From contig NZ_BCUR01000004.1 in NCBI RefSeq assembly GCF_003569005.1, positions 1,204,003 to 1,268,002 on the forward strand: a stretch of DNA of 64,000 bases. Direction: 5' to 3'. Origin of the DNA: Vibrio superstes. GTDB taxonomy: Bacteria; Pseudomonadota; Gammaproteobacteria; Enterobacterales; Vibrionaceae. Every line of letters starts with the position of its first letter. Within the stretch, counting starts at the first letter, position 1. The position numbers and the translations under genes were made by a program. The notes below the pieces were generated by a model that ran no database searches, had not been told where the DNA came from, and worked only from the letters and a program-made list of their open reading frames with translations. Positions 15,445 through 44,799 of this stretch are shown in pieces.

Positions 15445-16728
15445 ATGGAAAGCTTAACTCTACAACCTATCTCTAAGGTCAGCGGCCAAGTTAACTTGCC
15501 GGGCTCTAAGAGCGTATCTAACCGTGCACTATTGCTTGCAGCCCTTGCAAATGGCACAACTCGTTTAACTAACCTTCTCGACAGTGACGATATTCGTCAT
15601 ATGCTAAATGCCCTTGAGCAACTAGGCGTAAAATATAGTCTGTCTCAGGATAAAACAGTGTGTGAGATTGAGGGTCTAGGTGGCGTATTCAATGCGCCTA
15701 AAGCACTAGAACTGTTTCTAGGTAATGCAGGCACGGCAATGCGTCCATTGGCTGCGGCACTTTGTGCTAGCCAAGGTGAATTCGTACTGACGGGTGAGCC
15801 GCGTATGAAAGAACGCCCAATCGGTCACTTGGTTGATGCTCTGCGTGAGGCAGGTGCTGAGGTGACTTACCTTGAAAACGATGGCTTCCCACCGCTTAAG
15901 ATCCAAGGCACAGGGCTAACCTCTGGTGAAGTGTCTATTGATGGCTCTATCTCTAGCCAATTTCTAACGGCATTTTTAATGACCGCACCTTTGGCTGATG
16001 GCGATATCACTATCAACATCGAAGGCGACCTAGTTTCTAAGCCTTACATCGATATTACTTTGCATATCATGCAACAGTTCGGCGTTAGCGTTGAAAACTA
16101 CGATTATCAAAAATTCATCGTACGTTCTGGTCAAAGCTATGTAGCACCAGGGGATTTCTTGGTAGAAGGCGATGCATCGTCCGCATCATACTTCTTAGCG
16201 GCCGCTGCAGTTGGCGGTGGTGAGATCAAGGTGACAGGTATTGGCAAAGACAGTATCCAAGGCGATATTCAATTTGCAGATGCACTGCAGGCAATGGGCG
16301 CTGAAATTGAATGGGGCAGTGATTACATCATTGCTCGTAAAGGCGAACTAAAAGCGGTTGATATGGACTTCAACCATATCCCAGATGCAGCTATGACCAT
16401 TGCAACAGCAGCGCTGTTTGCAGAAGGTACTACGGCCATTCGCAACGTGTACAACTGGCGTGTAAAAGAAACAGACCGTTTAGCTGCAATGGCAACTGAA
16501 CTGCGTAAAGTGGGTGCGACGGTTGAAGAGGGTGAAGACTACATTATTATTACGCCGCCACAGCAGCTGATTCATGCGGCTATTGATACCTACGACGATC
16601 ACCGTATGGCGATGTGTTTCTCGCTGGTGGCATTGAGCGATACCCCTGTGACGATCAATGACCCTAAGTGTACGTCAAAAACCTTCCCTGACTACTTTGA
16701 TAAGCTCCAAGGTCTAGTCGTCGTTTAG
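15445..16728 (+). CDS. aroA: 3-phosphoshikimate 1-carboxyvinyltransferase (EPSP synthase)
   Basis: Sixth step of the shikimate pathway: shikimate-3-phosphate plus PEP gives EPSP. The 427 residues match class I AroA. Visible active-site segments are [16 protein letters not shown] near residue 20, [15 protein letters not shown] near residue 93, EPRMKERPI near residue 120, and the C-terminal DDHRMAM and [11 protein letters not shown]. In many enterobacteria aroA follows serC; here it stands alone with its own terminator at 16771, as in vibrios. Confidence 0.97.
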
Positions 16729-16770
16729 GTTGACAGGAAATTCGCTTGAAAGAAAACGAGTAGAATAAAA

Positions 16771-16798
16771 AACGGGCTCCCACTGGGAGCCCGTTTTA
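16771..16798 (+). terminator. aroA terminator
   Basis: Perfect 11-bp stem AACGGGCTCCC / GGGAGCCCGTT with an ACT loop, flanked by an A-run and a T-run, 42 bp after the aroA stop codon. Confidence 0.92.
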
Positions 16799-16814
16799 TG
16801 TGTAATCAGCTTTA

Positions 16815-16970
16815 TACCAATCGTAGTCAATAACGGGTCGTCCTAGCTTGTCAAAACACTCGATAACGGCGTTAGAATTTTTGATTATAGAATAACGACT
16901 TATCAAAAAGTTCTGCCTTGTTATCCAGGGTTTTTCCTATGCTATTTCTGACCACTGACTGTGATTGGTA
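16815..16970. repeat. MITE-like dispersed repeat, long copy (156 bp)
   Basis: The termini TACCAATC and GATTGGTA are inverted repeats, flanked on both sides by TTA (16812-16814 and 16971-16973), as if by a 3-bp target duplication. A second copy lies at 43860-43932; the outer 43 and 30 bp of the two align without gaps with five mismatches. This copy carries an extra 83-bp centre (16858-16940) that is itself an imperfect inverted repeat (GATAAC...AGAA...TTTTTGAT against its complement). No ORF is present. The right flank TTA is the complement of the TAA stop of the Bax-like gene. Confidence 0.82.
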
Positions 16971-17882
16971 TTAGTTGGCTGGTGGCGCCTGCTCAAGGAG
17001 TGCCTTGTTGTGACGCAACATCGTCAGAATATCATTGATGTAGTCATCAGAGCGCTCAGAGTAGCTGCCTAGCCCATGAATCAGCTGTTCAGCGGTTGGC
17101 GTCTTATGTTGTGCGCGAATATTCGCACGAAGCTCTCTAAAGCTGCTGTATGCTTGATTGGTGTTTAGGTTATCGACGTAGGCAGATACTGAATCACCAA
17201 CGGAGTCGAACTTAGCCACTTCGTGGGTCATACCTTCTTTACGTTGGTTTGGCACAACGCCACAGCCTTTGGTAAAGCACCACTGACCAAAGAAGTTATT
17301 GGCTTCTTTTGCAAAACGGGACGTTCCCCAGCCACTTTCATTGGCTGCTTGGATCAAAACCAGTTGTTCTGGAATGACGTCAACATGAACAAGTAGCGCA
17401 TCGACTTCATTCAGGCTGAAATCTTTCACTTCGACGCGATACTGACTGGCAATTTGAGCCAATGTATTCTGCTCTGTTTCAGACAATAATTGGCCATCAA
17501 CTAATTTGCTTTGTAGCGTCACTAACGTTTGGCGTTGCTGCTGAACAAAGGCGTTTTTCTTCTCAATGTATGGCTTAATGAAGGCAAAGAATTCACCTTT
17601 CTTCTGATTTACGTCACTAATTGCGGCAAAATCGGGTACCGATACTTTTTCAAATGTTAGAGAATTTTGGTTATTACCCATGCCTAGATGGTAATAGGTT
17701 GAAGCCATCAATATGATAGCCATGCTACCGATAATAATTGCGCCATTTGTTGGTATAAATCTGCGTAAACTCACCGTAATTCCTTGTCTCAATCGATTGA
17801 AAAATGTGAAGTAGGTCATTATATGTGAGAGTGAAGCGCTTGGATACAGGCGTAACATTATGTTGCGTGTTTTAGTTAGCAC
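16971..17882 (-). CDS. Bax-like glucosaminidase-domain membrane protein
   Basis: Putative peptidoglycan N-acetylglucosaminidase related to E. coli Bax and the FlgJ/LytG glucosaminidase domain. One transmembrane segment lies near residues 47-66, placing the C-terminal enzyme domain (about 165-290) in the periplasm. The probable catalytic glutamate is in AANESGWGTSRFAKEANNFFGQWC near residue 180, written AANESGWGTSR then FAKEANNFFGQWC. The start is uncertain: the GTG at 17882 and ATGs at 17858 and 17819 are all in frame and none has a strong ribosome site; the ATG at 17819 keeps the membrane segment and is a good candidate. Its stop codon abuts a dispersed repeat. Confidence 0.82.
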   Translation of the reverse strand: MLTKTRNIMLRLYPSASLSHIMTYFTFFNRLRQGITVSLRRFIPTNGAIIIGSMAIILMASTYYHLGMGNNQNSLTFEKVSVPDFAAISDVNQKKGEFFAFIKPYIEKKNAFVQQQRQTLVTLQSKLVDGQLLSETEQNTLAQIASQYRVEVKDFSLNEVDALLVHVDVIPEQLVLIQAANESGWGTSRFAKEANNFFGQWCFTKGCGVVPNQRKEGMTHEVAKFDSVGDSVSAYVDNLNTNQAYSSFRELRANIRAQHKTPTAEQLIHGLGSYSERSDDYINDILTMLRHNKALLEQAPPAN

Positions 17883-23277: not shown

Positions 23278-24010
23278 TTTATGATCCCATCAGATTTATA
23301 CAGCAAACAATTGTTGCCTAAGTAAAGTGCACAGCTGTGCCACAGAATAAGTCAATTATATAAGAGCTTTTCAAATAGTTAAATATAAAACAAATAAAAT
23401 TTCAAAAATAATAAGAAACAAAAGATTCCAAAATAAAAGGAACTTTTATAGCTTCATAAATTATTCGGGTTAATTCAAAACAAATTTACCTAACTTAAAC
23501 ATCGACTTAGAGTATTCGCTCTATTTAATGCGAGGTAATAAAAGCCTTGCTAACTAGCTGATCTTCATAGCTAAATTTTTCAGAGCGGGGTTCTGGAAAT
23601 AGATGATTAATACTTGGATACTGTTTCTCAATCAAGTATTGCCACTTTATGTTGCAATTTCGATTTAACTCAGTAGAATGCGTCGCTCCTAGATCATCTA
23701 GTAGCATATTACATTTTGTAAGTTGCCTAACTAGGGGATGAGGTAGAGGCGCAGATACTATCAGTAGCTAACAATAGAGTGATGTCGTTGTAATTGTTAG
23801 TGAAAGGAGTAACTGCCGAAATGAGTAATCCAATCAAGATTGCTTGTTGGGGTTATTTCCGAAAGGGATAACACTGCCATAGTCTATTGTGTTGTTAAAC
23901 TATGGAGCGCTACTGTGGGGTAACTTGTCGCCAGATGAGTTGCTTATTCAACATCTTGTCGAATACCTATCTACAGTAGATCTCTTACCAAATTTGGTAT
24001 TAAGAAGATC
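23278..24010. other. Long A+T-rich intergenic region between hns and nhaC
   Basis: About 730 bp. The left part is the probable hns promoter region and is strongly A+T-rich, including runs of A and T around 23380-23480. The right part contains a 41-codon open frame and two palindromes just before the antiporter gene, described separately. A 60-codon frame on the minus strand at 23525-23707 has no family resemblance or ribosome site and is not called. Confidence 0.6.
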
Positions 24011-25797: not shown

Positions 25798-25848
25798 ATG
25801 CGCCGACAAGATATGAACCTACATCATCATCACCATCACCCACACTAG
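25798..25848 (+). CDS. hisL: his operon leader peptide
   Basis: A 16-codon ORF, MRRQDMNLHHHHHHPH, with six consecutive His codons plus one more before the TAG stop. Ribosome stalling at the His run when His-tRNA is scarce would favour the antiterminator over the terminator at 25917. An internal ATG at 25813 would give an 11-residue version; neither has a strong ribosome site. Function follows from the E. coli/Salmonella HisL paradigm. Confidence 0.88.
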   Translation: MRRQDMNLHHHHHHPH

Positions 25849-25871
25849 TCTTTCGGGCGAGTTGCGCGTAT

Positions 25872-25948
25872 CCGGGAGACAATGCTCTCGGAGGTTGAAT
25901 CAAGAATACAGATTTAAACCCTTGGGAGCCTAGCCCCAAGGGTTTTTT
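25872..25948 (+). terminator. his attenuator (upstream hairpin plus terminator)
   Basis: The terminator is a perfect 10-bp stem AACCCTTGGG / CCCAAGGGTT (25917-25944) with an 8-nt loop and six T residues. Upstream is a smaller hairpin CCGGGAG / CTCTCGG (25872-25891), likely one of the alternative leader structures. The arrangement directly follows hisL and precedes hisG by 48 bp. Confidence 0.88.
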
Positions 25949-25995
25949 CATTTTACACGATTAACAAATTAGAATATCAGCACAGGGAATCTGCA

Positions 25996-43859: not shown

Positions 43860-43932
43860 TACCAATCGTAGTCAATGACTGGTCATCCTAGCTTGTTAAA
43901 ACGCTATTTCTGACCACTTACTGTGATTGGTA
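43860..43932. repeat. MITE-like dispersed repeat, short copy (73 bp)
   Basis: Termini TACCAATC and GATTGGTA; the halves are imperfect inverted repeats that fold into one long hairpin. It aligns to the copy at 16815-16970 with five mismatches in 73 bp and lacks that copy's 83-bp centre exactly at 43902/43903. It begins at the base after the ppaC TAG stop; flanking trinucleotides are TAG and TAA. Confidence 0.82.
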
Positions 43933-43961
43933 TAATCTGCGCGTTACAGCCAAATAGTAAG

Positions 43962-43991
43962 GGCAGGGTGAGTGATCATCCTGCCTTTTTT
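43962..43991 (+). terminator. ppaC terminator
   Basis: Stem GGCAGGGTGA / TCATCCTGCC (one G-T pair) with a GTGA loop and six T residues. It lies beyond the repeat, about 100 bp after the ppaC stop, so the repeat is probably transcribed with ppaC. Confidence 0.85.
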
Positions 43992-44010: not shown

Positions 44011-44799
44011 TTACTTAGAGTAGTTTGGTGCCTTGTAAAAGTGGTTATCAACCAGCTTCTGGGTAATGGCGTGTTGGGGATCAGATAATACCTTTTGCGT
44101 ATCACCCGCTTCCACCACTTTACCGTGAGACATCACCATTACCTTATCTGAGATGTGCTTAACGATACCAATTTGTTGAGATACATAGATAAATGACAAG
44201 CCCATTTCATCTTGCAGTTCTAACAAGAGGTTAATGATCTGCGATCTCATTGCCATATCTAGACCATTTAGCGCCTCATCAGCAATGATGATCGAGGGCT
44301 GAAGTATCAGTGCCCTTGCAATACAGACCCTTTGTTTTTGTCCTGCAGCCAACATTTGTGGATAGAAATACGCATGCTCAGGCAGCAAACCCACACGTTT
44401 TAGCGTTTCAATTACGCGTCGCTTACGTGCCTCTGGTGGCATAGCGGTATTTCTTTTTAGCGGGCCTTCAAGGATTCGACCAATTTGAATACGTGGATTC
44501 AAGGAGGAATTGGGGTCTTGGAAGATCACGCGTATCAACTTACAGCGAGTCGCATAGTCTTTGTGTTCTAGCTTTTCGCCGTTAACAAAGATCTCGCCTG
44601 AACTTGGTTCAATGACCCCTGCTAGCATTTTGGCCAAAGTTGATTTTCCAGAAGAGTTTTGTCCAATTAGTGCCAATGTCTGACCGGGCTCTAGAGTAAA
44701 ATTGACCGGCTTTACCGCATCAAAGTACTGCTTTCTAAATAGCCCATAGCGGTTGACGAAGGTTTTACTTAGGTCCTTAACCTCTAGTAACGAGCTCAT
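44011..44799 (-). CDS. sapF: Sap ABC transporter ATP-binding protein SapF
   Basis: Second ATPase of the Sap importer. 262 residues with Walker [10 protein letters not shown], a signature region [14 protein letters not shown] in place of the usual LSGGQ, and Walker [13 protein letters not shown]. The altered signature AAGQKQR is typical of SapF. Start overlaps sapD by 4 bp. Last gene of the leftward sapABCDF operon, implicated in resistance to antimicrobial peptides and potassium or heme uptake in other bacteria. Confidence 0.92.

What the first reader, a model, noticed from the sequence alone, without database searches (positions are those of the whole stretch)
16815..16970. MITE-like repeat inserted exactly at stop codons
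The copies at 16815-16970 and 43860-43932 both have TACCAATC/GATTGGTA termini. The first has TTA on both sides; its right TTA is the complement of the TAA stop of the Bax-like gene. The second begins at the base right after the TAG stop of ppaC. Two of two insertions touching a stop codon in a non-disruptive way suggests either target preference for TTA/TAR sequences or strong selection. Such a repeat could also act on the 3' ends of mRNAs.
Basis: seen in the sequence. Interest (0 to 1): 0.6.

Follow-up and report, generated by a model that had tools for sequence, protein, structure and literature searches.

The report
Palindromic mini-transposon at gene ends
A 160-letter, hairpin-shaped jumping DNA with no gene of its own has spread through many marine bacteria; it copies a three-letter TAA or TTA target when it lands, and since TAA is also the usual stop signal, it can land exactly on the end of a gene without harming it.

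Summary
In detail: both window copies sit exactly on a gene's stop codon. Relatives show why. In the closest species without the element the bax-like and ppaC stops are plain TAA. Here each TAA was duplicated on insertion; ppaC's gene-side copy later became TAG. The genome holds at least 66 two-ended copies. Together with 86 distinct insertions from other Vibrionaceae, 115 of 152 keep an identical 3-bp duplication; all 115 are TNA, 107 TAA/TTA. Stop codons are not sought as such: 23 of 139 classifiable insertions use the exact stop against 18.4 expected from random TAA/TTA in the same spacers (P 0.13). The neighbourhood is non-random: copies crowd into 3' and convergent spacers, within 10 bp of a stop (48 against 31.0) and 12-35 bp from an intrinsic-terminator hairpin (54 against 27.9). 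The element is one long imperfect palindrome of about 160 bp, with matches in 42 of 119 genomes sampled across its order (9 families) and strong compensatory base changes. No autonomous transposon with these ends was found in the partial lists checked. Verdict: an ERIC-like palindromic MITE, unrelated in sequence to YPAL, not shown to be related to ERIC; its breadth, fold and unknown transposase are the interesting parts.

The parts
16815..16970 (+). Element copy 1, 156 bp, near full length
   Evidence: 41 genome matches; covariance model 166.4 bits on the minus strand; empty site in five relatives aligned
16812..16814 (.). Left target-site copy TTA
16971..16973 (-). Right target-site copy TTA = TAA stop codon of the bax-like gene
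   Evidence: stop is TAA at the empty site in V. comitans, V. inusitatus, V. breoganii and V. halioticoli, TAG in V. ezurae
   Evidence: ORF; 79 related loci
16772..16794. Intrinsic-terminator-like hairpin between the upstream aroA-like gene (name by my reading) and copy 1
   Evidence: Sequence checked; kept in the relatives
43860..43932 (+). Element copy 2, 73-bp internally deleted short form; same junction in 77-bp copies at C1:11033 and C1:1258760
   Evidence: covariance model 59.6 bits
43857..43859 (+). Left target-site copy, now TAG = stop of ppaC; TAA in 29 of 29 relatives read
43933..43935 (+). Right target-site copy TAA
   Evidence: matches the empty-site TAA of relatives
   Evidence: ORF
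43962..43985 (.). Intrinsic-terminator-like hairpin between copy 2 and the convergent ABC-transporter-like ORF (44011-44799 minus, name by my reading)
   Evidence: Sequence checked; kept in close relatives

Best explanation
A non-autonomous palindromic transposable element (MITE), about 160 bp, moved in trans by an unidentified transposase that cuts a staggered TWA (rarely TSA) target and leaves a 3-bp direct repeat. SHOWN: ends, duplication, empty sites for both window copies, multi-copy state, nested copies, wide distribution in the order, and conservation of a long hairpin by compensatory changes. In the window both insertions hit the TAA stop of a gene in a convergent pair; duplication of TAA left the protein unchanged. 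INFERRED: copies persist where they do no harm (3' and convergent spacers), and target choice or retention favours TWA sites close to gene 3' ends, 12-35 bp outside a terminator hairpin. Stop codons are common in that zone and usually TAA, so they are hit at about the rate their number predicts. INFERRED: the hairpin is kept because mobile lineages need it, not because resident copies serve the host.
For: Identical TNA duplications 115 of 152 distinct insertions, 107 TWA; 12 of 14 loci read in wider relatives. Empty sites: copy 1; copy 2. 66 two-ended copies in the own genome; 71 of 150 genomes of the family; 42 of 119 genomes of the order, 9 families. Exact stop 23 of 139 against 18.4 expected, P 0.13. 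Convergent spacers hold 32 of 59 own copies against 13.6% of noncoding TWA, P 2e-13. 12-35 bp from a terminator hairpin: 54 observed, 27.9 expected; own 27 against 11.9, relatives 27 against 16.1. Hairpin: 95.3% of cells paired against 28.6-44.6% when slid; 25 of 50 pairs with changes on both sides. Private changes G-U:A-C 12:16, shared ones 29:15.
Against: No autonomous partner was found: among listed ends, no forward end has as its next end a reverse end 0.5-3 kb away in the own genome (the second list lacks 1 of 101), in G144 and G072 (100 of 132 and 50 of 74 places listed, none listed for G122 and G092) or in G221. Six stretches between or around ends up to about 4 kb apart hold no ORF that I read as a transposase (by eye, no family search). 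PF13359 in 1 of 150 genomes. A near-constant length over distant families is unusual for deletion derivatives of an IS (recalled). The terminator zone was set after looking at both data sets; in relatives' tandem spacers alone it is not significant (11 against 8.0, P 0.14). 37 of 152 insertions lack identical 3-mers.
Confidence: 0.8

Rival explanations
1. The element actively targets stop codons: the machinery recognises translation stops or TAA in a coding context.
For: Both window copies are exactly on stops. Copies are within 10 bp of a stop 48 times against 31.0 expected from the same spacers, own 18 against 12.3, relatives 30 against 18.8. Before shared insertions were merged, relatives' tandem spacers had 15 exact stops against 6.6 expected; after merging 9 against 5.1, P 0.057. 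The ppaC stop was used in the own genome and carries an end remnant in L368.
Against: Exact stops over all: 23 of 139 against 18.4, P 0.13; the near-stop excess lies mainly at 1-10 bp (25 against 12.6), not on the codon. Relatives' convergent spacers 5 against 6.3. Own tandem spacers 0 of 17 within 20 bp.
Confidence: 0.06
2. Location is due to purifying selection alone: the transposase takes any TWA, and only insertions away from promoters, coding DNA and terminator stems survive.
For: Divergent spacers hold 11 of 139; sites inside hairpins are depleted, 5 against 13.9, and 0-11 bp from them 18 against 26.5. Stable stem-loops in general are reported to favour convergent spacers and the 50 bp after stops (passage of PMC1590033).
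Against: Within convergent spacers, which as a rule have no promoters (general knowledge), 12-35 bp is 36 against 17.6 while 36 bp or more is 9 against 11.8.
Confidence: 0.45
3. A host-useful RNA element: transcribed in 3' ends of mRNAs, its hairpin protects or processes the transcript, and copies are kept for that.
For: 3'-end location; strong RNA fold, z -8.5 and -11.5; compensatory changes; ERIC affects and YPAL may affect transcripts (passages of PMC10969869, and PMC2229807).
Against: Private changes in resident copies are not biased to G-U, 12:16. No clear orientation bias in tandem spacers, 39 against 29. Few insertions shared between species: 175 copies give 152 loci, though the sample (best one to five copies per genome) was not made to test that.
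Confidence: 0.12
4. It is a member of the ERIC (RU-1/IRU) family.
For: Ends begin TATACC in both; both are palindromic and intergenic. End-to-end alignment to the E. coli ERIC consensus scores above all but 2 of 400 shuffles (z 2.7).
Against: Local alignment is not significant (z 0.94, 69 of 400 shuffles as high) and the Salmonella version is weaker still. ERIC-like loci do not show the 3-bp TNA arrangement (19 loci read, one with its right end not located). ERIC finds no match in the own genome.
Confidence: 0.05

Closest known systems
ERIC / IRU / RU-1 (enterobacterial repetitive intergenic consensus, 127 bp)
   Same: Short palindrome, many intergenic copies over several families, ends TATACC...GGTATA; no known autonomous partner (last point recalled)
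   Different: No significant local similarity, end-to-end score borderline; 127 against about 160 bp; 19 ERIC-like loci mostly keep TA at both ends rather than a 3-bp TNA repeat
YPAL / RU-2 (Yersinia palindromic sequence, 168 bp)
   Same: Palindrome of similar length; targets span or adjoin dyad symmetry; empty and filled sites known (PMC2229807 section 11)
   Different: No sequence similarity; no TA at the termini, not A+T rich, duplications of 3-26 bp
Correia/NEMIS and RUP (MITEs of Neisseria and pneumococcus)
   Same: Short, TIRs, no transposase (table passage in PMC2229807)
   Different: Different hosts; sequences not compared here
PIF/Harbinger-type and IS1031-group (IS5 family) elements
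   Same: Three-bp TWA/TNA target duplication (recalled, from no call)
   Different: No transposase linked to these ends; PF13359 in 1 of 150 genomes of the family

Membership tests
Bacterial MITE | Short, terminal inverted repeats, no transposase gene | tested here: met
   156/73 bp with TACCAATC/GATTGGTA; no ORF of 60 aa or more inside
Bacterial MITE | Target-site duplication and empty sites | tested here: met
   115 of 152 identical, all TNA; empty sites
Bacterial MITE | Autonomous relative with the same ends | tested here: inconclusive
   None seen in the listed places of the own genome, G144, G072 and G221; lists were cut
ERIC | Homology to the 127-bp consensus | tested here: inconclusive
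   Local z 0.94, 69 of 400 shuffles as high; end-to-end z 2.7, 2 of 400
ERIC | TATACCC ends with TA at the target | tested here: not met
   This element has 3-bp TNA repeats outside TACCAAT; in 19 ERIC-like loci that arrangement was not seen
YPAL/RU-2 | Homology to the 168-bp repeat | tested here: not met
   Local z -0.35 and 0.47 on the two strands
YPAL/RU-2 | Insertion next to dyad symmetry / terminators | tested here: met
   12-35 bp zone 54 against 27.9 expected; works alike, is not a member
Known RNA family (Rfam 15) | Gathering-score match | tested here: not met
   None at the element; four sub-threshold matches in 16700-17080
IS5/IS1031 or PIF-Harbinger derived | Mobilisation by that transposase | not testable with these tools
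   Needs a transposition assay; only the TWA target agrees (recalled)

The most novel reading that the evidence does not exclude
An ancient mobile hairpin spread over an order, whose transmissible unit is the folded single strand (RNA or single-stranded DNA) rather than an IS with its middle deleted, and whose integration machinery reads transcription terminators, so that it lands beside gene ends.
Probability: 0.12. Interest if true: 0.78.

Novelty: new member of a known kind. Interest (0 to 1): 0.45.

Why it matters
It gives a mechanism for a puzzling pattern: a TWA-cutting element can invade stop codons harmlessly because the duplicated triplet is itself a stop. It defines a palindromic element that I did not find named, with model matches in nine families of its order (read letter by letter in seven: nearly the same length, same ends, same flank rule) and no known transposase. 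That makes an old question about ERIC-like repeats (what moves them, and whether the hairpin serves the host or the element) testable with a large natural set of copies.

Tried and rejected
Stop-codon targeting: rejected as a rule by matched-site expectation, although sites 1-10 bp from a stop are in excess. Fixed spacing to terminators: suggested by the own genome, noted as a prediction of 12-31 bp before the relatives were fetched, reproduced only as a broad zone; the 12-35 bp limits were set after both histograms had been seen. YPAL/RU-2 and RU-3 homology: rejected; ERIC: not shown. PF13359 as partner: 1 of 150 genomes, not followed further. End-pair search for an autonomous element: nothing. 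E. coli: only a 36-bp stretch in terB on plasmids of 10 of 5426 genomes at E 0.1, taken as chance. Phages: no match. Strand bias as proof of RNA function: a first count (283:19) used pairs predicted on one strand with G-U allowed and was discarded as biased; the strand-neutral count is and its own-genome shared part is 7:7. A gene caller with too strict a threshold was replaced. One search gave no alignment (wrong program option) and was redone. The paper library is open-access only; De Gregorio 2006 on YPAL was seen only as cited in PMC2229807. The 29 papers were seen as a listing of 20 and not opened.

Rows dropped: of 98 fuzzy core hits 32 had only one or no recognisable end and were left out; 2 of the 71 places were not fetched; copies without the core (for example L206-L208) are not among the 66; 9 of 66 own and 4 of 86 relatives' insertions could not be classified for spacer type or lie inside a called gene. 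Relatives' copies are the best one to five matches per genome, not a random sample. The ppaC relatives are the 29 best of 203 genomes with a match.

Mended on re-check: E-value limit, sizes of the micro-copies (21 and 29 bp), the bax-like stop in V. ezurae (TAG), the end-to-end ERIC score, the near-stop excess, the number of relatives in the end-pair lists.

Full report
WHAT IS THERE. The two copies are as described. Copy 1 is 156 bp, copy 2 a 73-bp form that lacks the middle. The window lies in a 4.72-Mb, five-contig genome. Its nearest named relatives by the bax-like protein are Vibrio breoganii (95% identity), V. comitans (93%) and V. inusitatus (91%) (which may leave out the own species); the species itself is not named.

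THE FAMILY IN THIS GENOME. Copy 1 finds 41 matches, itself included, at E <= 2.5e-43, with 40 of 96 candidates scored. An 18-bp core finds 71 places with up to 3 mismatches against 5 for the reversed control. I held 69 of these 71 places and located both ends in 66 copies. Of the 66, 53 have identical 3-mers on both sides: 30 TTA, 20 TAA, 2 TGA, 1 TCA. Length clusters at 160 bp, with short forms near 101 bp and 73-77 bp. One copy is nested in another at a TAA inside it (L064), and tiny copies of 21 and 29 bp flanked by TAA/TAA and TTA/TTA exist (L200, L207).

EMPTY SITES. For copy 1, five named relatives aligned over the site have no insert; the bax-like gene ends in TAA in four of them and in TAG in V. 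ezurae. Here the TAA is followed by the element and a second TAA. For copy 2, the ppaC stop is TAA in 29 of 29 relatives read (the best 29 of 203 genomes with a match); the closest one (95% identical) has no insert. The ppaC 3' spacer also carries ends or whole copies in L367, L368, L370 and L376, four of the 29; the L368 remnant starts at the ppaC stop itself. The four relatives closest to the own genome (L363-L366) have none, so these are probably separate hits (inference).

IS THE STOP CODON A TARGET? A home-made gene caller (codon usage from the window, 84% coding) gives 9 exact-stop insertions of 66 in the own genome. For a second set I took 109 copies from other genomes of the family (29 loci and 80). 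After merging insertions shared between genomes, 175 copies give 152 distinct loci. Of 139 that could be classified, 23 are exactly on a stop; random TAA/TTA in the same spacers predict 18.4 (P 0.13). Own: 9 against 7.0. Relatives: 14 against 11.4. Results that point the other way: against all noncoding TWA the own-genome figure looked enriched (P 0.002-0.005); relatives' tandem spacers before merging had 15 against 6.6, after merging 9 against 5.1 (P 0.057); and copies within 10 bp of a stop are 48 against 31.0. The last excess lies mostly at 1-10 bp (25 against 12.6), beside the codon rather than on it. So stops are hit at about the rate at which TWA sites there predict, inside a favoured neighbourhood. 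Of 152 loci, 115 have identical 3-mers, all TNA: TAA 59, TTA 48, TGA 4, TCA 4.

WHERE IT SITS. In the own genome 32 of 59 copies lie between convergent genes, which hold 13.6% of noncoding TWA sites in spacers without a copy (P 1.9e-13). In relatives before merging 32 of 104 against 11.1% (P 4.7e-8). After merging: 60 convergent, 68 tandem, 11 divergent. With a home-made terminator finder, 107 of 139 such spacers have an intrinsic-terminator-like hairpin. Copies 12-35 bp from its edge: 54 against 27.9 expected from other TWA in the same spacers; own 27 against 11.9, relatives 27 against 16.1 (P 0.0004). Inside the hairpin 5 against 13.9; at 0-11 bp 18 against 26.5; at 36 bp or more 30 against 38.6. 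The weak point is the relatives' tandem spacers, 11 against 8.0 (P 0.14). Selection against damage explains the low numbers inside and next to hairpins. It does not easily explain the excess over more distant sites in convergent spacers (36 against 17.6, and 9 against 11.8).

STRUCTURE AND SPREAD. The consensus folds as one hairpin on either strand (z -8.5 and -11.5); copy 1 without its last 28 bases does not stand out (z -0.70). A DNA search finds the element in 71 of 150 genomes of the family, 5 of 13 genera. A covariance model from 28 sequences finds it in 42 of 119 genomes of the order, own included, 13 of 59 genera, 9 families; two other genomes of the own genus had none, and one of the nine families (f8) has only weak matches (best E 8e-9). 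Fourteen loci read from seven families have 158-161 bp, nearly the same ends, and identical TNA flanks in 12 of 14. One Pseudoalteromonas plasmid copy is 160 bp with TAA on both sides and is homologous (z 10). On 21 diverged sequences 95.3% of pair cells form standard pairs against 28.6-44.6% for slid structures; 25 of 50 pairs have changes on both sides, 107 such cells against 12-22. The structure was derived from these sequences, which favours it on the first measure.

WHAT KEEPS THE HAIRPIN? If resident copies were kept as RNA, single changes that leave G-U should survive more than those that leave A-C on the transcribed strand. On 153 sequences, with pairs defined without G-U on both strands, private variants are 12:16, that is no bias; variants shared by two or more copies are 29:15 (P 0.049), relatives alone 15:1 (P 0.0005), own alone 7:7. 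I read this as drift in resident copies and constraint in the lineages that still move. The evidence is modest and the own-genome part does not show it.

WHAT MOVES IT? Unknown. Among listed ends no forward end is followed next by a reverse end 0.5-3 kb away (own genome; G144 and G072 in part; G221). Six stretches with ends up to about 4 kb apart were fetched; their ORFs look like ordinary genes by eye (no family search made). A TWA duplication fits IS1031-type or PIF/Harbinger-type transposases (recalled), yet PF13359 is found in 1 of 150 genomes.

COMPARISON. Literature searches. Papers: passages of PMC10969869, PMC2267715, PMC1590033, PMC2759123, PMC6382973; passages and one section of PMC2229807; the rest as listings. 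None of the passages describes this repeat; I did not find it in print in this open library, which does not prove that it is undescribed. YPAL behaves most alike (palindrome, dyad-symmetric targets) but is unrelated in sequence. ERIC shares the look of the ends, has no significant local similarity (end-to-end score above all but 2 of 400 shuffles) and lacks the 3-bp arrangement. PMC1590033 (passage) reports that stable stem-loops in general favour convergent spacers and the 50 bp after stop codons, so part of the location pattern is ordinary.

VERDICT. Observation correct; explanation ordinary in kind (target duplication of TWA in 3' spacers), with an unusually widespread and structurally conserved palindromic MITE behind it.

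Noticed in passing
L200 (C1:27842) and L207 (C1:602021): Micro-copies of 21 and 29 bp made of little more than the two ends, still with TAA/TAA and TTA/TTA flanks; either deletion at the palindrome or very small mobile forms.
   Followed up: partly
L031 (window 43860), L032 (C1:11033), L033 (C1:1258760): Three short copies (73-77 bp) share one internal deletion junction but lie at different loci, so the short form itself may have moved.
   Followed up: partly
own genome and relatives, exact-stop copies: Opposite orientation bias: own 8 with the gene on the element's right side and 1 on the left; relatives 12 left and 2 right. Unexplained.
   Followed up: no
window 23736-23920 and 25824-25951: Lysine riboswitch and histidine operon leader, both above Rfam gathering scores.
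   Followed up: no
own genome: More unpaired TACCAATC ends than the reversed-pattern control would give; of 20 stretches read some are half copies (L209, L210) or core-deleted copies (L206, L208), others chance or coding matches.
   Followed up: partly
own C1:1258495, C4:1504500, C4:1947403, C4:2281435: Four own copies fall inside a called gene, each about 4-11 bp from its 3' end, so they change only the last codons.
   Followed up: no
own C1:128410-129939 (L397): Two nearly full copies in the same orientation flank a single 317-aa ORF, a composite-like arrangement.
   Followed up: no
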